Assembly: GCA_018400545.1 (NCBI GenBank)
Contig: JAGYLT010000005.1
Coordinates: forward strand, 1-24,723
From: Bacteroidales bacterium
GTDB lineage: Bacteria > Bacteroidota > Bacteroidia > Bacteroidales > 4484-276
Direction: 5' to 3'
Length of the DNA: 24,723 bases
Part shown: piece after piece, positions 14,690 through 23,391 of the stretch
Position numbering within the stretch: the stretch's first letter is position 1
How the letters are laid out: every line of letters starts with the position of its first letter
The notes under the pieces: model-generated
Databases searched by the model: none
What the model was told of the DNA's origin: nothing
Seen by the model: only the letters and a program-made list of their open reading frames with translations
Made by a program: the position numbers and the translations under genes

Positions 14690-15394
14690 TTAACCCACCA
14701 GGCTGATTTTTTCCAACACTCTGATATCAGGGATGTGAACACGATCGCCATCCATTTCAATGACTTTTTCCGTTTTAAACTCTTTCAAAATCCTGATTAC
14801 ACTTTCCTTCGAAAGGTTGGTCATATCTGCCAGGTCCTGCCGGGTTAATGGCATACCAAACTCGGTTGAACCATAAATATCTTTGCTGAGGTATAACAAA
14901 GCATCCGCCACGCGACCCGGCATTTGTTTCTGGGTCAGATCTGAAAACTTATTAAAGCTGTAAATAGCATTACGATTAATATGCTCGATGTATTTTTCAG
15001 CAAAATCCGGATTCGAGCGGATGGCTTCCCTGAATCGCTGCCGGGTAATAAAACATATGGTGCAATTTTCGAGGGCAGTGGCAGAATAATAGTTTCTGCC
15101 ATCGAGAAATATGCCGGGTCCCCCAAACATCTGAACGGGTTTTACAAGTTTTAGAATAAGTCCGCGGTCGTTTTGCCCTTCCAGGAATATTTTTGCAAGT
15201 CCGCTGGTAAGCATTAAAATATGTGTAGCAGCTGAACCCTGTTTAAAAATCATTTCCCCCTTGCGGTATGATGCCTCAAACCGCTCCTGGTTCAGCCTTT
15301 CCAGTTGTTCGGCAGTCAGTAAACTAAATAACGGCGATCGCTTATTACAATCGCTGCAGTTATTACAGTTTGATGATTTTTGAAATTGTATCAT
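14690..15394 (-). CDS. FNR-like Crp/Fnr family transcription regulator
   Basis: This 234-residue regulator has an N-terminal cysteine cluster (Cys10, Cys13, Cys16), a cyclic-nucleotide-binding-type beta-roll at about 25-140 (KGEMIFKQGS, ILMLTSGLAKIF), the long dimer helix at about 135-165, and a winged helix-turn-helix at about 178-205 (LTRQDLADMTNLSKESVIRIL). Cys114, in the ENCTICF segment, aligns with the fourth cluster ligand of E. coli FNR. The set of four cysteines suggests an oxygen-labile [4Fe-4S] sensor; this is inferred from spacing only. It is divergent from the cytochrome operon and is the obvious candidate regulator of it. Confidence 0.88.
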   Translation of the reverse strand: MIQFQKSSNCNNCSDCNKRSPLFSLLTAEQLERLNQERFEASYRKGEMIFKQGSAATHILMLTSGLAKIFLEGQNDRGLILKLVKPVQMFGGPGIFLDGRNYYSATALENCTICFITRQRFREAIRSNPDFAEKYIEHINRNAIYSFNKFSDLTQKQMPGRVADALLYLSKDIYGSTEFGMPLTRQDLADMTNLSKESVIRILKEFKTEKVIEMDGDRVHIPDIRVLEKISLVG

Positions 15395-15618: not shown

Positions 15619-16641
15619 ATGAGAAAGATTAGTTTAGCACACGTTTTTATGTTGATGATCCTGGCGCTGGCAGTAGCAGCAGGATGTACAAAAGAAGGAC
15701 CGGCAGGCCCGCAAGGCCCTGCAGGTGAAGACGGAACCGATGGCGTTGACGGAAATGCCTCATGTATCCAGTGTCACACCATTGAATACATGAATCAGAT
15801 CGAAGAGCAGTATGCCATGTCGGGTCACTCGGCAGGTTTGTATGTTGGCTATGCCGGTAGCCGTAACGATTGCGCCATGTGCCACTCCGATGAGGGATTC
15901 CGTGAAACGCAACACACCGGACTGGATACGACCGCAAATGATATTCCAATTCCAACCCACATTCAGTGTTCCACCTGTCACAGTTTCCACCAGACACTGG
16001 ACTTCGAAAACGACGGACCCGATTACGCCGTTCGCGAAAACGGACCGGTTGATTTGCTGATGTATCGCGGAAGTGAACCTCCTGTTAACCTCGACTTCGG
16101 CAACAATTCAAACCTCTGTTTGAATTGCCACCAGCCAAGGAGGGCAGAACCAGAGGATGACGGAAGTGGAATGTTCACCATTACCAGCACCCACTATGGT
16201 CCGCACCACGGTACACAGGGAACATTCCTGCAGGGCATCGGCGGCGCTGAAATTGGTGTTGGCTATCCGGAACCTGGAAGCTCAACCCACACCCAGGCCG
16301 GTTGTACAGGTTGCCACATGCATGAATATGCCGATGAAGAAGGCGGACACACCTGGAAAGTTCCGGTTGCTTCCTGCACACCCTGTCACGAAGGTGCCAC
16401 AACCCTCGATATAAACGGCGTGCAAACCGAGATCGAAGATTTGATGGAACAACTGAAAGATGAGCTGTTGGCACTTGGCATAATAGACGAAGAAGGTCAC
16501 CCGATACCGGGTACCTATCCGTTGGTTCAGGTTCAGGCATTTTACAACTATGCCGGTCTGGTTGACGACCGCAGCAATGGTGTTCACAATCCCGGATACA
16601 TCAAACAGCTCGTAACCAACTCGATCAATGTATTAGACTAA
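15619..16641 (+). CDS. Hexaheme c-type cytochrome lipoprotein with collagen-like stalk
   Basis: This 340-residue protein begins with a lipoprotein signal ending AVAAGC (lipidated Cys23). Next comes a collagen-like Gly-X-Y stretch at about 27-46 (GPAGPQGPAGEDGTDG). Six intact CXXCH heme motifs follow: CIQCH at 49-53, then CAMCH, CSTCH, CLNCH, CTGCH and CTPCH. It should be anchored to a membrane and exposed to the periplasm or cell surface, where it would carry electrons. The C-terminal 70 residues contain a helical segment (EDLMEQLKDELLAL) without heme sites. It is the first gene of a four-gene unit with a monoheme lipoprotein, a beta-barrel and a cytochrome c. The redox partner is not known. 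Confidence 0.9.
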   Translation: MRKISLAHVFMLMILALAVAAGCTKEGPAGPQGPAGEDGTDGVDGNASCIQCHTIEYMNQIEEQYAMSGHSAGLYVGYAGSRNDCAMCHSDEGFRETQHTGLDTTANDIPIPTHIQCSTCHSFHQTLDFENDGPDYAVRENGPVDLLMYRGSEPPVNLDFGNNSNLCLNCHQPRRAEPEDDGSGMFTITSTHYGPHHGTQGTFLQGIGGAEIGVGYPEPGSSTHTQAGCTGCHMHEYADEEGGHTWKVPVASCTPCHEGATTLDINGVQTEIEDLMEQLKDELLALGIIDEEGHPIPGTYPLVQVQAFYNYAGLVDDRSNGVHNPGYIKQLVTNSINVLD

Positions 16642-16652
16642 AATATTTGATT

Positions 16653-16700
16653 ACCAAAAAAGGGGTTTCTTAGAAAATACTCTATTGAAACCTTTTTGGT
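16653..16700 (+). terminator. Imperfect intergenic hairpin after the hexaheme gene
   Basis: ACCAAAAAAGGGGTTTC pairs with GAAACCTTTTTGGT downstream, with small bulges, leaving a loop of about 17 bases. It lies between the first and second genes of the unit. It could partially terminate transcription or stabilise the upstream message. Confidence 0.4.
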
Positions 16701-16734
16701 TGATCACATAACTGTCACCCAAAATTTGAATTTT

Positions 16735-17130
16735 ATGAGCATAAAAAGACTAATCCAGCTTGCAGCTATGGCAACGATTATTGCCATGCTGGCTTCCTGT
16801 GAATATGAATTTATTCAGCCCGAACCTGCTCCACCACCACCCGAACCTACGGATACCATAAGTTTTGCTGCTGAAGTTGTCCCGATCTGGGATAACAACA
16901 ACTGCACAAACTGCCACAAGCCGGGCGGAGTTTCGCAACTTCACCTCACCACATCCGAAGCATACAGCAGCCTGACATCATTGGGCATTTACAATACTGC
17001 TGATCCGGCATCCAGCAGGATTTATACTTTCCCGCATCCAACTACCGGTGAACACAATTATAAATATTCCAATGAAACCGAAGCCGACATCATCTTGCAA
17101 TGGATCACACAGGGGGCAATGGATAACTAA
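16735..17130 (+). CDS. Monoheme cytochrome c lipoprotein
   Basis: This 131-residue protein has a lipoprotein signal ending MLASC (Cys22). A proline-rich linker follows (about 28-40, APPPPEP), then a compact domain with one heme motif (CTNCH, in NNNCTNCHKPGG), followed by LHLTTSEAYSSL and a C-terminal ILQWITQGA helix. This pattern resembles the short cytochrome c domains found in Planctomycetes and Bacteroidota. The ATG at 16735 is chosen because it places a proper signal peptide at the N-terminus; upstream in-frame codons lack one. It probably works with the hexaheme lipoprotein upstream and the barrel downstream in envelope electron transfer. Confidence 0.8.
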   Translation: MSIKRLIQLAAMATIIAMLASCEYEFIQPEPAPPPPEPTDTISFAAEVVPIWDNNNCTNCHKPGGVSQLHLTTSEAYSSLTSLGIYNTADPASSRIYTFPHPTTGEHNYKYSNETEADIILQWITQGAMDN

Positions 17131-17153
17131 GCTGAATAACTAAAAACTTGATT

Positions 17154-18029
17154 ATGATGAAAAAGATTATAGCAGGAATTTTAATACTTACAATGAGCTG
17201 TTTGCATCTTGTTGCACAGGATGAAGCAGAACCGGCAGACAAGCCCGTAAGATTTTCGTTTGCCAGTGGGCATCTCATCGATAACCAAACCAGTACCTTG
17301 CCGGTAAAAAATACCCTCGAATGGGTGATTCAGCACCGGTTTGGAACCATGGACAACGGCACCTCAGACCTTTTTGGACTTTATGCACCAGGGGCGAATA
17401 TCAGGAATGGTTTTAACTACACTATTCTGGATAATTTATCGGTAGGTTACGGCCTTACCCTGAAAAACATGTACAGCGATTTTAACATTAAGTATGTTGC
17501 GCTGGAGCAAACCAGGGAAAACACCATCCCGGTTTTCGTTACATTGTACGCCAACATGGCCATAGACGGCCGGAAGGATGATGTGTTCGGAACGGAATAC
17601 AAGTTTACGAACCGCTTTTCCTATTTCAGCCAGCTGATCGTTGGCCGTAAAATTAGCTACTGGCTTTCGCTGCAGGCGCATACATCATTCACGCACTACA
17701 ATTCGGTAGCTGACGATATGAATCACGATGTGATCGGAGTTGGATTTAATGGGCGGATCAATTTCTCTCCCCAGTCATCCATACTTTTGCAGTATGACCA
17801 TCCTCTTAAGATCGAGTCCATTTCGGAGCAAAGCGAATTTGATGCAGCCAAGCCGAATTTTGGTATTGGCTATGAAGTATCCACGAGTACGCATGCATTT
17901 CAAATTTATGTAACTTCGTCGAATAGTATTTTGCCACAGGATGCATATCTATATAATAATTTTGATCTGAGCAATGGTTTTTCCGACCTGATGATCGGTT
18001 TTACCATTACCCGATTATGGGGATTTTAA
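17154..18029 (+). CDS. DUF5777 family outer membrane beta-barrel protein
   Basis: This 291-residue protein has a signal peptide (about 1-21, ending HLVAQ) and beta-barrel sequence with amphipathic strands: LEWVIQHRFG, NIRNGFNYTILDNLSVGYGL, and a C-terminal DLMIGFTITRLWGF ending in Phe. It matches the DUF5777 pattern, a Bacteroidota family often encoded with c-type cytochromes. Here it stands between a monoheme lipoprotein and a soluble cytochrome c, so it may be the barrel of a porin-cytochrome conduit; that role is inferred and heme proteins that would thread it are not proven. The start is one of two adjacent ATGs, at 17154 or 17157. Confidence 0.75.
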   Translation: MMKKIIAGILILTMSCLHLVAQDEAEPADKPVRFSFASGHLIDNQTSTLPVKNTLEWVIQHRFGTMDNGTSDLFGLYAPGANIRNGFNYTILDNLSVGYGLTLKNMYSDFNIKYVALEQTRENTIPVFVTLYANMAIDGRKDDVFGTEYKFTNRFSYFSQLIVGRKISYWLSLQAHTSFTHYNSVADDMNHDVIGVGFNGRINFSPQSSILLQYDHPLKIESISEQSEFDAAKPNFGIGYEVSTSTHAFQIYVTSSNSILPQDAYLYNNFDLSNGFSDLMIGFTITRLWGF

Positions 18030-18081: not shown

Positions 18082-18501
18082 ATGAAAAAATCTAGTTTAG
18101 TAATGCTGACAGCACTTGTAGCAGGAATATTTATGCTCATGTCGTTCATGGTTCCCCAGGAACAAAAGAAGCCCGAACCATGGGATATTCCTTCGAAATA
18201 TGAGAAAATGGAAAATCCTTATGCGGGAGATAAAAGCCTCGACCGTGTTGGAAAAATACTCTATTCCAAGCATTGTAAATCATGCCATGGAAACCGGGGT
18301 GAGTGCGACGGTCCCAAAGCAAAACAGCTTGAAACCCGGTGCGGTGATTTCACTTCAGAAGAATTTCAGTTACAATCAGATGGCGTATTGTATTACAAGT
18401 CTTTCATAGGCCGTGATGAAATGCCTAACTTTGAAAAGAAGATTCCTGAAGAGGAAGATCGCTGGGCAGTAATTAACTATATGAGATCAATGAAAAAATA
18501 A
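18082..18501 (+). CDS. Small periplasmic class I-type cytochrome c
   Basis: This 139-residue protein has an N-terminal signal or anchor (about 4-24), then a single cytochrome c domain: heme motif CKSCHGNRG, axial methionine in GRDEMPNF, and a C-terminal helix RWAVINYMRSM. This is the layout of small cytochromes c that shuttle electrons in the periplasm. The usual GxGDGP sequence after the heme motif reads GECDGP here, adding a cysteine near the heme, and a second extra cysteine follows in ETRCGDF. A strong hairpin after the gene probably ends the first unit. Confidence 0.88.
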   Translation: MKKSSLVMLTALVAGIFMLMSFMVPQEQKKPEPWDIPSKYEKMENPYAGDKSLDRVGKILYSKHCKSCHGNRGECDGPKAKQLETRCGDFTSEEFQLQSDGVLYYKSFIGRDEMPNFEKKIPEEEDRWAVINYMRSMKK

Positions 18502-18544
18502 CGGCGGTTTTCTTCTGCTGATTTATTTTTCAAATAACTGATCT

Positions 18545-18610
18545 GAAAAATACCCTGGTAGGAGAACCATTTAGAAAATAATAGTAGCATAATCCTACAG
18601 GGTATTTTTC
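18545..18610 (+). terminator. Long hairpin between the two cytochrome units
   Basis: GAAAAATACCCTG, one bulged G, TAGGA pairs with TCCTACAGGGTATTTTTC, giving 18 base pairs around a 29-base loop and ending in a T-run. It lies 43 bases after the cytochrome c stop. It is a likely terminator or attenuator separating the units. Confidence 0.65.
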
Positions 18611-18618
18611 TATAGTTT

Positions 18619-18631
18619 GCATGATTCATGC
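18619..18631. promoter_or_regulatory. 13-bp dyad GCATGA-T-TCATGC
   Basis: This perfect short dyad lies between the hairpin and the second unit. It could be an operator; no regulator is assigned. Confidence 0.3.
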
Positions 18632-18662
18632 TAACAATAATTTTAATATGACGCCAACGAAA

Positions 18663-18686
18663 TGATTGTTTTATTCGAAACAATCA
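18663..18686. promoter_or_regulatory. Putative operator TGATTGTTT-N6-AAACAATCA
   Basis: Nine-base perfect arms are separated by six bases, about 100 bases before the second cytochrome unit. The inner part, TGTTT-N6-AAACA at 18667-18682, has the same half-site start and spacing as the dyad at 15550-15565. It is therefore a candidate site for the same FNR-like regulator. Confidence 0.45.
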
Positions 18687-18788
18687 GGCACCTGCCGGGA
18701 TGTTAAAATGAGATTAAAAACCAAACAGACCCCGAACAATGATGAGAGGAGTATGAACGGGCTTATCATTTCTAAACATTTCCAAAAA

Positions 18789-20183
18789 ATGAAAATCAAA
18801 CTATCCATACTACTCGTATTTCTGATCAGCTTCGGCCTGACCGCAATGATGACATTTGGCCAGGAAAATACTGATACGATACCCGAAAATGTGCTTGCAA
18901 ACGAAACATGCCTGAAATGCCACGGTCAGGATTTTTACTATTATTACAACGACTGGATTGAACGTAATGTCAGCGAAAAAATGAACCCTTACTACGTAAT
19001 TGATTCTGCAGAATTCTATGTGTCGAATCACAAAACATTTTATTGTACCGACTGCCAATCAGCCGATTATGAAACATTCCCCCACGATGATTTATTGAGA
19101 ATGGAACCCAGTTATACTTGCATGGACTGTCATGGCGGGGATGAAAATTATGCACAATACAATTTCGATGAAATTGAGAATGAATATAATAAAAGCGTGC
19201 ATGCCAAACGTCACGATGAAACCTTTAGCTGCTGGATGTGTCTCGATCCACATACTTACCGTATCAGTGCACGTACCAATAAAAGTGTAATAAACATTGT
19301 AGCCTGCGACAATGGTATCTTCCCGGAGCGTAATGCCGATCTTAACATGTACCAACTGGTAACCGATAAAGAAAACCCCAACATCCTGAACACACATTAC
19401 TGGCTTCCAAACCAAAGCATGCACTTTGCCAATGTAAGATGCATCGAGTGCCATGCCGAGATCAACAACAGCCTCCTGGCAACCCACCTGGTGCTGCCCA
19501 GGGAAAAGGCCGTGAAAAAATGCGTGGAGTGTAATTCCACGAATTCGTTGCTAATGGCATCGCTTTATAAATATCAGGCCCTCGAACAGAGAGGCAAACT
19601 GGGATTTGTTAATGCTGCCATACTTAACGAAGCCTATGTTATTGGTGCAAATCGCAGCCCGCTCCTTAACAATGTCAGCATCATCGTTTTTGGGTTGGTT
19701 TTGCCTGCAATCATTATTCACGCTTTAAAAGAATCATCAAAAACTAAATTTACTATGTCAAAGGAAATGATATATCTATATCCTGTATGGGTCAGGCTTT
19801 GGCACTGGATCAATGCGGTATTGTGCATTTTATTGCTTCTGTCTGGTATCAGCATGCAATACTCAAACCCGCAATATCCTTTTATACGTTTCGATATTGC
19901 GGTCTCAATGCATAATATTGCTGTTAACCTCCTAACCTTAAGTTATGCGATGTTTATCATAGGAAACTGGAAAACGGGAAACGGGAAATATTACAGAATG
20001 AAAATCAGGAAAATCATTCCCGAAGTTAAAAAACAATTTGTATATTATACGGAGGGTATATTTAATAAAAACACACCAAAGCCCTACCCTATAAGTAAAG
20101 AAAGGAAATTTAACCCATTGCAGAAAGTATCTTATGTGTCGGTTATCCATTTTTCATTGAGCGATCAGTGGATTACCAGGTAG
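18789..20183 (+). pseudogene. Multiheme cytochrome-cytochrome b fusion with degenerate heme motifs and truncated C-terminus
   Basis: This 464-residue open frame starts with a signal peptide (1-25, ending MTFGQ). Three heme motifs are intact: CLKCH at 41-45, CMDCH at 111-115 and CIECH at 218-222. Four expected sites are broken: CTDCQ at 86-90, CWMCL at 148-152, IFPERN at 177-182 where a CxxCH would fit, and CVECN at 245-249. A membrane helix at about 308-326 follows. Then comes a cytochrome b-type part with RLWHWINA and SMHNIA carrying candidate heme b histidines, which ends after the KERKFNPLQK segment, two helices short of the usual four. The frame is otherwise open and the in-frame ATG at 19755 could once have begun a separate cytochrome b gene. 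It is either a decaying gene or a functional protein with fewer hemes. The ATG at 18789 gives the signal peptide directly. Confidence 0.7.
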
Positions 20184-20201
20184 CAACAAAATACAGAAAT
20201 C

Positions 20202-21176
20202 ATGAGTCGATCAAAAGACGATAGCAATTCAAGGAGAAGTTTCCTGAGGAAGGGAATTCTCGCGGGTTCTGCTGCCATTGCAGGCAGTGCTTTTATCTCG
20301 TCGTGCAGCAGTGAACCCGAAAGCGGCGAAAAAATAAAGGTATTAACCACCGATGGGAAAGTGGTTGAGGTGGACAAAGCACATGTTAAAACGGAAAAAC
20401 AGCTCAGGGCGGAAGCCAGGGAAGGTGTTCCGGGTAGAAAGTTCGTAATGGTGATCGACCTGGCCAAATGCGCAAATGCCCGGAAATGTACCGAGGCCTG
20501 CCAGGAAGGGCATCATCTTCCGAAAAGTATTGAGTATATCAGGGTGTATCTTTTACAGGATTCCGAAAAAACCGCACCTTACTGGTTTCCAAGGCCTTGC
20601 TTCCACTGCGACAATCCGCTTTGTGTTAGCGTATGTCCGGTTGGAGCAACCTATAAGAGATCAGACGGGATTGTGCTTGTGGATCAGGAGCGCTGTATCG
20701 GATGTAAATTCTGTATGACCGGATGTCCTTATTCTGCAAGGTCCTTTGCCTGGGATCATCACGATAAATACGAAAAACCCATCCAGTACGATCCTGAAAC
20801 AACAACACCCGGCAAAGAAGGCACCGTATCGAAATGTGTTTTCTGTGCCGATAGGGTTGCTGAAAAGAAACTACCATATTGTGTAGAAGCCTGCCCGATG
20901 GGCGTGATATACTTCGGCGATATAGATGAAGATACAGTGACGAATGGCGCAGAAACAGTGCTTTTTAGCCAGCTTATTAAAGACCGGGGTGGTTATCGCT
21001 ACCTGGAAAATCTGGGCACACGGCCAAGTGTGTATTACCTGCCACCGGTAAACCGGCAATTCGATATTGAACGTGGTTTCGAAGGCCTGGAAGAAGATGT
21101 AAAAGAAAGATATAAAGACACACCATACTACCAAAAAAATATTTCTGATCATGGAAACAGGGATGAAAAACTATAA
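20202..21176 (+). CDS. Tat-exported four-cluster ferredoxin-like subunit (NrfC/PsrB/HmcB type)
   Basis: This 324-residue protein begins with a twin-arginine signal (SRRSFLRKG at 10-18, hydrophobic to about 33) and Cys35 in a possible lipobox (ISSC). Four iron-sulfur motifs follow: Cys90/96/100; Cys133/136/141/145; Cys165/168/171/175; and Cys212/215/227/231. Such proteins pass electrons between a quinone-reactive NrfD-type membrane subunit and periplasmic cytochromes. The first motif has Ala93 where the second of four cysteines is expected, giving 15 rather than 16 ligands. The next gene overlaps its end, which suggests translational coupling and a tight complex. Confidence 0.9.
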   Translation: MSRSKDDSNSRRSFLRKGILAGSAAIAGSAFISSCSSEPESGEKIKVLTTDGKVVEVDKAHVKTEKQLRAEAREGVPGRKFVMVIDLAKCANARKCTEACQEGHHLPKSIEYIRVYLLQDSEKTAPYWFPRPCFHCDNPLCVSVCPVGATYKRSDGIVLVDQERCIGCKFCMTGCPYSARSFAWDHHDKYEKPIQYDPETTTPGKEGTVSKCVFCADRVAEKKLPYCVEACPMGVIYFGDIDEDTVTNGAETVLFSQLIKDRGGYRYLENLGTRPSVYYLPPVNRQFDIERGFEGLEEDVKERYKDTPYYQKNISDHGNRDEKL

Positions 21177-22464: not shown

Positions 22465-22500
22465 CATTGGAAAATGATAAATCATAAATATGATCGATCT

Positions 22501-23391
22501 ATGAAAACCAAGAGATATTTCATACATACATTCAGGGTATTTTTAGCAATTATTGCAGTGGGTATTTTTCAGAACCTTGCGGCACAAGCTCCGGTTTATG
22601 CCGAACTCACAACCTGGAAATACGATGACCTTTCACGCGATCTTATCGTAAAAGCCACTAGCGAGAACAACGAGGGCGAGATTCCTGCCACGGGTTTGAA
22701 TTTTATATTTTTCGTAATGTCCGACGGCGAGCCTGTGAATATAGGTCAGGCTGAAGCCGGTAAGGCCGGAAAGGCTGTTCTAACGCTGGATCCAGGGTCT
22801 GAGCTCCCAAAAGACGATGAGAATTATATAACGATAAATGCAGTTTTTGAGGGCACTGGAGATTTCGAGCCGGCAGAAACCGAACTGATGTTTAAGGATG
22901 TAATCATCGATCTTAAATTTGTTGAGGAAGACCAATCAAAATACATAGCATATTCCGGGAGGATTATCAATAAAGATGGTGAACTGATACCACTGGCAGA
23001 TGATGAAGTGGGTTTTTATGTTCCCCGAATGTTCAGCTTCCTTAGAATTGCCGATGGCTGGTTCGAAGAAAATGGAGAGGGAGTTGCCGAATATCCCTCT
23101 CATATCATAGGTGATCCGGAGGGGAAACTTGAAGTGCATGCACGAATACTCGATCACTGGGACTTTGGCAATGTGGAAAGAATATCTACAGTTGACTGGG
23201 CGAAAAAAAGAAGGCTTATTGCCGCCGAGCAGCCCTCGAGAGAACTCTGGACGCCCATTGCCCCGCTCTGGATGATCATCACACTTATCATTTTGCTGGC
23301 GGGTGTTTGGGGGCACTATATCTATGCCATGTATGAACTTTATATGATTAAAAAAATAAGCAAACGCGAGAAGAAAAAGAACCAACATTAA
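22501..23391 (+). CDS. Anchored extracytoplasmic protein of unknown function, cytochrome-operon associated
   Basis: This 296-residue protein has an N-terminal signal peptide (about 6-29, ending NLAAQ) and an extracytoplasmic part of about 215 residues with two beta-sandwich-like segments (GLNFIFFVMSDGEPVNIG and YIAYSGRIINKDGELIPL). A single membrane helix at about 252-276 and a basic cytoplasmic tail (KKISKREKKKNQ) close it. No cysteines for heme or clusters are present. I do not recognise the family. Its position 36 bases after the NrfD gene, before the unit's terminator, suggests an assembly or anchoring role for the redox complex; this is inferred. The ATG at 22501 is chosen over 22474 because it directly precedes the signal peptide. 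Confidence 0.7.
   Translation: MKTKRYFIHTFRVFLAIIAVGIFQNLAAQAPVYAELTTWKYDDLSRDLIVKATSENNEGEIPATGLNFIFFVMSDGEPVNIGQAEAGKAGKAVLTLDPGSELPKDDENYITINAVFEGTGDFEPAETELMFKDVIIDLKFVEEDQSKYIAYSGRIINKDGELIPLADDEVGFYVPRMFSFLRIADGWFEENGEGVAEYPSHIIGDPEGKLEVHARILDHWDFGNVERISTVDWAKKRRLIAAEQPSRELWTPIAPLWMIITLIILLAGVWGHYIYAMYELYMIKKISKREKKKNQH

What the first reader, a model, noticed from the sequence alone, without database searches (positions are those of the whole stretch)
18789..19710. Multiheme cytochrome that has lost heme ligands at four of seven sites without losing its frame
Seen: intact CXXCH at residues 41, 111 and 218. At 86-90 the His is Gln (caa), at 148-152 it is Leu (ctc), at 245-249 it is Asn (aat). 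At 177-182 the positions where Cys, Cys, His are expected read Phe (ttc), Arg (cgt), Asn (aat). Each of these six changes is one base from the expected Cys or His codon. The surrounding sequence (MEPSYTCMDCHGG, THLVLP, ASLYKYQ) still looks like a constrained cytochrome. Random decay should also hit other positions and create stops. Options are early pseudogenisation, selection against heme loading, conversion to a structural subunit, or base errors in the assembly.
Basis: partly seen in the sequence, partly recalled or inferred. Interest (0 to 1): 0.75.

Follow-up and report, generated by a model that had tools for sequence, protein, structure and literature searches.

The report
Decaying seven-heme respiratory cytochrome gene
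A respiratory gene in a Bacteroidota-like genome is in the early stages of breaking: it has lost four of its seven heme sites and has run on into a truncated neighbouring gene, and it is most likely an ordinary young pseudogene rather than a new kind of cytochrome.

Summary
The residue-level observation is right: 3 of 7 CXXCH remain, and the six changed ligands are kept in 119 of 119 listed homologues, so this is no heme-poor subfamily. "Without losing its frame" is wrong. In the nearest relatives the cytochrome is a separate ~319-aa gene followed by a ~205-aa cytochrome b gene. Here a net one-base loss at about 19725-19730 skips the stop and fuses the two. Cytochrome b then ends 63 codons short at 20183, its last dozen codons hardly resembling the family. 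Eight neighbour genes look intact at invariant positions. The cytochrome's branch is longer than its sister's, even without ligand columns (0.116 vs 0.042). Zero nonsense changes is unsurprising (P 0.30-0.41). Best reading: an early pseudogene pair in a retained operon. One oddity stays: ligands were hit more than equally conserved residues (6/21 vs 1/52, p=0.002), weakening to p=0.04 if cluster 178-182 is one event. Reads, sister DNA and dN/dS were not available.

The parts
18789..19747 (+). Degraded membrane-anchored seven-heme c-type cytochrome gene (residues 1 to about 312 in the family frame; family stop TAA at 19745-19747 now out of frame)
   Evidence: nearest homologue P0002 (319 aa, 80-81%) ends ...RIIKN; the same residues and a stop are read in another frame here
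19056..19058 (+). Heme site 2: proximal His position holds Gln (residue 90)
   Evidence: His in 119 of 119 homologues
19242..19244 (+). Heme site 4: proximal His position holds Leu (residue 152)
   Evidence: His in 119 of 119
19320..19334 (+). Heme site 5: Cys, Cys and His positions all changed (residues 178, 181, 182), plus residue 179 Leu to Pro
   Evidence: ligands in 119 of 119; residue 179 Leu in 22 of 22 genomic orthologues
19533..19535 (+). Heme site 7: proximal His position holds Asn (residue 249)
   Evidence: His in 119 of 119
19725..19730 (+). Region of the net one-base loss that shifts the frame past the stop between the two genes
   Evidence: both frames read against relatives; the exact base cannot be resolved without sister DNA
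19755..20183 (+). Truncated cytochrome b561-family gene (142 codons against 205 in P0121), now in one frame with the cytochrome c gene; last helix missing
   Evidence: PF01292, profile positions 2-70 of 179; 82-83% to P0121
20145..20183 (+). Last dozen codons of the truncated cytochrome b, little or no likeness to the family, ending in TAG
   Evidence: local alignment of three frames no better than shuffles (p 0.56-0.95); MAFFT nevertheless places them without gaps with I140 and T141 matching; 7 of 11 window-derived replacements of cytochrome b lie here
20202..21176 (+). Intact 4Fe-4S dicluster subunit gene (DsrO/NrfC-like), next gene of the operon
   Evidence: 1 of 120 invariant columns changed, 8 orthologues; 90% to P0241
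21151..22464 (+). Intact NrfD-like membrane subunit gene
   Evidence: (4 of 160, 8 orthologues)
22474..23391 (+). Intact unnamed protein gene of the same cluster
   Evidence: 1 of 27, 6 orthologues
18082..18501 (+). Intact monoheme cytochrome c gene upstream
   Evidence: 0 of 18, 15 orthologues
17148..18029 (+). Intact DUF5777 outer-membrane barrel gene upstream
   Evidence: 0 of 16, 22 orthologues
16696..17130 (+). Small intact protein gene of the cluster
   Evidence: 0 of 9, 18 orthologues
15619..16641 (+). Intact multiheme lipoprotein-like cytochrome gene of the cluster
   Evidence: 0 of 39, 19 orthologues
14690..15394 (-). Intact Crp-like regulator gene beside the cluster
   Evidence: 1 of 29, 16 orthologues

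Best explanation
An early-stage pseudogene pair. The ancestor had, as relatives do, a seven-heme, membrane-anchored periplasmic cytochrome c followed by a four-helix cytochrome b561-type subunit, inside a gene cluster with a DUF5777 barrel, further cytochromes and, in part of the relatives, Fe-S, NrfD and an unnamed protein. The likely job, inferred from family resemblance only, was passing electrons between the quinone pool and periplasmic cytochromes. In this lineage selection on the pair stopped. Four heme sites were lost by point changes, a one-base loss put the two genes into one frame, and the end of cytochrome b was removed or scrambled. Three scattered hemes of seven plus a cytochrome b without its last helix could hardly carry the original electron path, while the genes on both sides remain intact. 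Shown: the lesions, conservation in the family, the lengthened branch, intact neighbours. Inferred: loss of function, order of events, electron-transfer role.
For: Ligand changes shared by none of 119 homologues and none of 22 genomic orthologues. Fusion by a net one-base loss. Cytochrome b 142 instead of 205 codons with a tail unlike the family. Terminal branch 0.140 vs 0.037 for the sister, 0.116 vs 0.042 without ligand columns and residue 179. 21 window-derived replacements against 4 in the sister, p=0.0009. Eight neighbours: 1/29, 0/39, 0/9, 0/16, 0/18, 1/120, 4/160, 1/27 invariant columns changed, all within the range of the orthologues, against 7/56 in the cytochrome. Zero nonsense changes has P 0.30-0.41. 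One other genome (G058) carries a broken copy of the same pair.
Against: The fused frame is open for 464 codons, and natural fusions of the two genes exist (P0003, P0012, P0025), so fusion alone is not damaging. 51 of 52 highly conserved non-ligand positions are kept, perhaps more than free drift would leave, and the seven non-CXXCH histidines found in 119 of 119 homologues, plus H311, are kept. Codons 1-129 of cytochrome b are not accelerated (0.307 vs 0.289), and 0 of 25 invariant columns tested there are changed. One of 23 other sister pairs is as lopsided (P0021/P0032, 1 vs 21). Regression of cytochrome against Fe-S identity was inconclusive. dN/dS could not be measured: the sister's DNA is not held.
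Confidence: 0.75

Rival explanations
1. Assembly or sequencing artefact: consensus errors or a strain mixture produced the substitutions and the frame change.
For: No second copy of this sequence was found (the P0001 cluster has one member, the window itself); no genome is held for the window and no reads.
Against: Errors would have to fall almost only in this gene pair: the long ORFs around are open and eight neighbour genes look normal at invariant columns. Fifteen further non-ligand replacements and the missing end of cytochrome b fit divergence better than base errors.
Confidence: 0.13
2. Selection against heme loading: after its membrane partner broke, a still expressed multiheme cytochrome became costly or harmful, and loss of heme sites was favoured ahead of general decay.
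For: Among columns at least 98% conserved, ligands are hit 6/21 vs 1/52 others (p=0.0018); 6 of 21 derived replacements are ligands against 1.5 expected (p=0.003). The accelerated homologue P0032 has 0 of 21 ligand changes.
Against: Three of six ligand changes lie in one five-residue cluster; counted as one event p=0.038, without it p=0.09. The feature was tested because it looked striking. The branch is long outside the ligands too. The one other broken copy (G058) keeps all seven CXXCH, so broken copies do not regularly lose ligands first.
Confidence: 0.07
3. A working heme-reduced fusion: three hemes plus about three helices, kept as a structural part or altered electron carrier.
For: Open frame, natural fusions of the pair (P0003, P0012, P0025), 51 of 52 highly conserved non-ligand residues and the conserved non-CXXCH histidines kept; cytochrome b codons 1-129 not accelerated.
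Against: Cytochrome b lacks its end and has a tail unlike the family; retained sites 1, 3 and 6 are not neighbours in sequence; none of 119 homologues is an intermediate.
Confidence: 0.05

Closest known systems
Bacteroidota 'cytochrome c3 family' seven-CXXCH proteins (P0002, P0004-P0011 and relatives; Pfam PF14537/PF14522/PF09699)
   Same: Homology over residues 1 to about 312, C-terminal anchor, place beside cytochrome b
   Different: 119 of 119 listed homologues keep the six ligands lost here; the window copy matches no cytochrome c model of Pfam at E 0.001, P0002 matches five
Cytochrome b561 family PF01292; nearest NCBIfam model thiosulfate reductase cytochrome b (NF011582)
   Same: 82-83% to P0121 over the part that remains
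   Different: 63 residues short, last helix absent; P0121 scores 159 bits and the window fusion 106 bits against a cut-off of 204, so neither qualifies as that named subunit
Loss of multiheme cytochromes in Pelobacter carbinolicus (PMC2923632, PMC3543383; passages seen)
   Same: Lineage-specific loss of multiheme cytochrome genes
   Different: There whole gene families are reported lost and a histidyl-tRNA shortage is proposed; here a gene is caught part-way and the conserved non-CXXCH histidines are kept

Membership tests
Functional seven-heme Bacteroidota cytochrome (P0002 group) | Seven CXXCH sites | tested here: not met
   3 of 7 in the window; of 119 homologues 116 have 7 and 3 have 6
Functional seven-heme Bacteroidota cytochrome (P0002 group) | Seven further invariant His (81, 99, 138, 155, 203, 212, 233) | tested here: met
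   All kept; each His in 119 of 119 homologues; a role as distal ligands is inferred
Functional seven-heme Bacteroidota cytochrome (P0002 group) | Own stop after the C-terminal anchor, or a fusion to a complete cytochrome b | tested here: not met
   Stop out of frame, run-on into an incomplete cytochrome b
Cytochrome b561 (PF01292) | Complete domain including the last helix (its heme ligand role is recalled) | tested here: not met
   Profile positions 2-70 of 179 only; P0121 covers 2-179
Pseudogene | Disabling lesions not shared by relatives | tested here: met
Pseudogene | Relaxed constraint (dN/dS near 1 on the branch) | tested here: inconclusive
   Protein branch lengthened, but no sister DNA, one of 23 other pairs as lopsided, cytochrome b 1-129 not accelerated
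Pseudogene | No functional product | not testable with these tools
   No expression or protein data

The most novel reading that the evidence does not exclude
Once its membrane partner is broken, an expressed multiheme cytochrome is selected to stop binding heme, so heme sites are lost first while fold and other histidines are kept: a signature of toxic or wasteful orphan cytochromes.
Probability: 0.08. Interest if true: 0.6.

Novelty: new member of a known kind. Interest (0 to 1): 0.22.

Why it matters
As found, it is a snapshot of a respiratory module being dismantled in a Bacteroidota-like lineage: the cytochrome c/cytochrome b pair is damaged while flanking subunits survive. It warns that counting CXXCH motifs in metagenomes can mistake a decaying gene for a three-heme cytochrome. 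If the ligand excess held up in more decaying copies, it would suggest that heme loading of orphan cytochromes is itself selected against, which could be tested.

Tried and rejected
Normal heme-poor subfamily: rejected, none of 119 homologues nor 22 genomic orthologues shares the changes. Replacement of cytochrome-maturation genes by a foreign Fe-S/NrfD module (my first idea, from L002, where ResB/CcsA-like genes follow cytochrome b): rejected, since Fe-S/NrfD follow cytochrome b in 8 of 21 loci that hold both genes. Remnant of the cytochrome b C-terminus after codon 130: three frames tested, no better than shuffles. A window-specific terminator upstream of the gene: the spacer hairpin has a different counterpart in L002; Rfam gave no match over 18400-20300. 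Structure of sister P0002: mean pLDDT 54, too poor to place hemes or search folds. Solved structures by sequence: only a weak match to an entry named cytochrome c (28pb) and, at a laxer threshold, 6qvm. Closer DNA for dN/dS: searches of 295 and 393 (overlapping) genomes gave at best 67% protein identity to P0002; family searches covered 1 and 2 genomes. Literature: searches; no paper on this gene was seen in those listings (15, 1, 3, 8 and 12 papers listed); passages read in PMC3543383 and PMC2923632 only.

Full report
WHAT IS THERE. The ORF from 18789 runs to 20183, not to 19710: 464 codons. Its first part is a c-type multiheme cytochrome (by homology) and its second part, from an ATG at 19755, belongs to the cytochrome b561 family.

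THE FAMILY HAS SEVEN SITES. The homology search found 1398 proteins and listed 120, the window's own among them. Of the 119 others, 116 have seven CXXCH and three have six; the window has three. At each of the six lost ligand positions 119 of 119 keep Cys or His. The same positions are invariant in 22 orthologues taken from genomes. So this is not a normal subfamily.

THE FRAME IS NOT INTACT. The nearest relative P0002 (319 aa, 80-81%) and the other close ones end with RIIKN or similar; in L002 the DNA shows a stop there and a separate cytochrome b gene. P0121, the nearest cytochrome b, comes from a contig of the same length, 2700 bases, as P0002, presumably the same one. In the window RIIKN and a stop (TAA at 19745-19747) are present in another frame; a net one-base loss at about 19725-19730 takes translation past the stop and, by chance of spacing, into the cytochrome b frame. 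More distant relatives have natural fusions (P0003, P0012, P0025), so fusion alone need not be harmful. But cytochrome b is cut: it ends with a TAG at 20181-20183, 63 residues short of P0121 and 18 bases before the next gene. Its codons 131-142 hardly resemble the family: MAFFT places them without gaps with I140 and T141 matching, 7 of 11 window-derived replacements of this gene lie there, and local alignments of three frames are no better than shuffles. So either a burst of changes before a new stop or foreign or scrambled sequence; I cannot tell. PF01292 is matched over positions 2-70 of 179, against 2-179 in P0121.

CONTEXT. I compared 23 loci from 22 genomes. In the 21 that hold both genes, cytochrome c and cytochrome b lie side by side. 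The small gene and the DUF5777 barrel precede them in 18 of 21, the multiheme lipoprotein-like cytochrome in 13, the monoheme cytochrome c in 9; some contigs end early, and in L039 and L046 the arrangement differs. Fe-S, NrfD and the unnamed gene follow in 8 of 21, as in the window. In the window the neighbours are intact: changed/invariant columns are 1/29, 0/39, 0/9, 0/16, 0/18, 1/120, 4/160 and 1/27, within the range of the orthologues' own leave-one-out values, against 7/56 for the cytochrome; 6 to 22 orthologues per gene. By NCBIfam the Fe-S protein is nearest DsrO, the NrfD protein nearest DsrP and the cytochrome b nearest a thiosulfate reductase subunit, all below their cut-offs. A quinone-to-periplasm electron-transfer module is therefore inferred, not shown.

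RELAXED CONSTRAINT. Window-derived replacements in residues 25-312 number 21 against 4 in the sister (p=0.0009; 22 against 3 with another outgroup choice). The window's terminal branch is 0.140 against 0.037, and 0.116 against 0.042 without ligand columns and residue 179 (32 sequences). Against this: 1 of 23 other sister pairs is as lopsided, the first 129 codons of cytochrome b are not accelerated, and identity regression against the Fe-S protein was inconclusive. The missing stop codon in the cytochrome is no argument for constraint: 21 missense changes predict 0.9-1.2 nonsense changes, P(0)=0.30-0.41.

ARE LIGANDS HIT PREFERENTIALLY? Among columns at least 98% conserved, 6 of 21 ligand and 1 of 52 other columns changed (p=0.0018); at 90%, 6 of 21 and 7 of 92 (p=0.015); residues after 312, beyond the frame change, were left out. 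In the homologues ligands change least (2 of 2496 cells). On the other side, three ligand changes and residue 179 sit in one stretch of five residues; as a single event the excess is p=0.038, and leaving it out p=0.09. The test was also prompted by the pattern itself. A second broken copy (G058: a frame break and in-frame stops in both genes; assembly error not excluded there either) keeps all seven CXXCH, so decay of this gene does not always start with ligands. I treat the excess as suggestive.

VERDICT. Early pseudogene pair in an otherwise kept gene cluster, 0.75. Artefact 0.13, heme-specific selection 0.07, working fusion 0.05.

Noticed in passing
L057 1404-2880 (G058:C95): A second genome has a broken copy of the same cytochrome c / cytochrome b pair (frame breaks, in-frame stops) that keeps all seven CXXCH; assembly error not excluded.
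   Followed up: partly
P0003, P0012, P0025; open frames of 551 and 540 aa in G161 and G218: Natural fusions of the seven-heme cytochrome to cytochrome b occur in more distant relatives; for G161 and G218 only the open-frame length was seen.
   Followed up: partly
P0021/P0032: P0032 is another accelerated homologue (21 derived replacements against 1 in its sister) but with no ligand changes.
   Followed up: no
18546-18609: Strong hairpin with A and T tails between the monoheme cytochrome c gene and the broken gene; L002 has a different hairpin in the same spacer. It may be a terminator.
   Followed up: partly
22474-23391: Unnamed conserved protein, by eye with a signal peptide and a C-terminal membrane segment, after NrfD in 8 of 8 loci with Fe-S/NrfD, without Pfam or NCBIfam match at E 0.001.
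   Followed up: no
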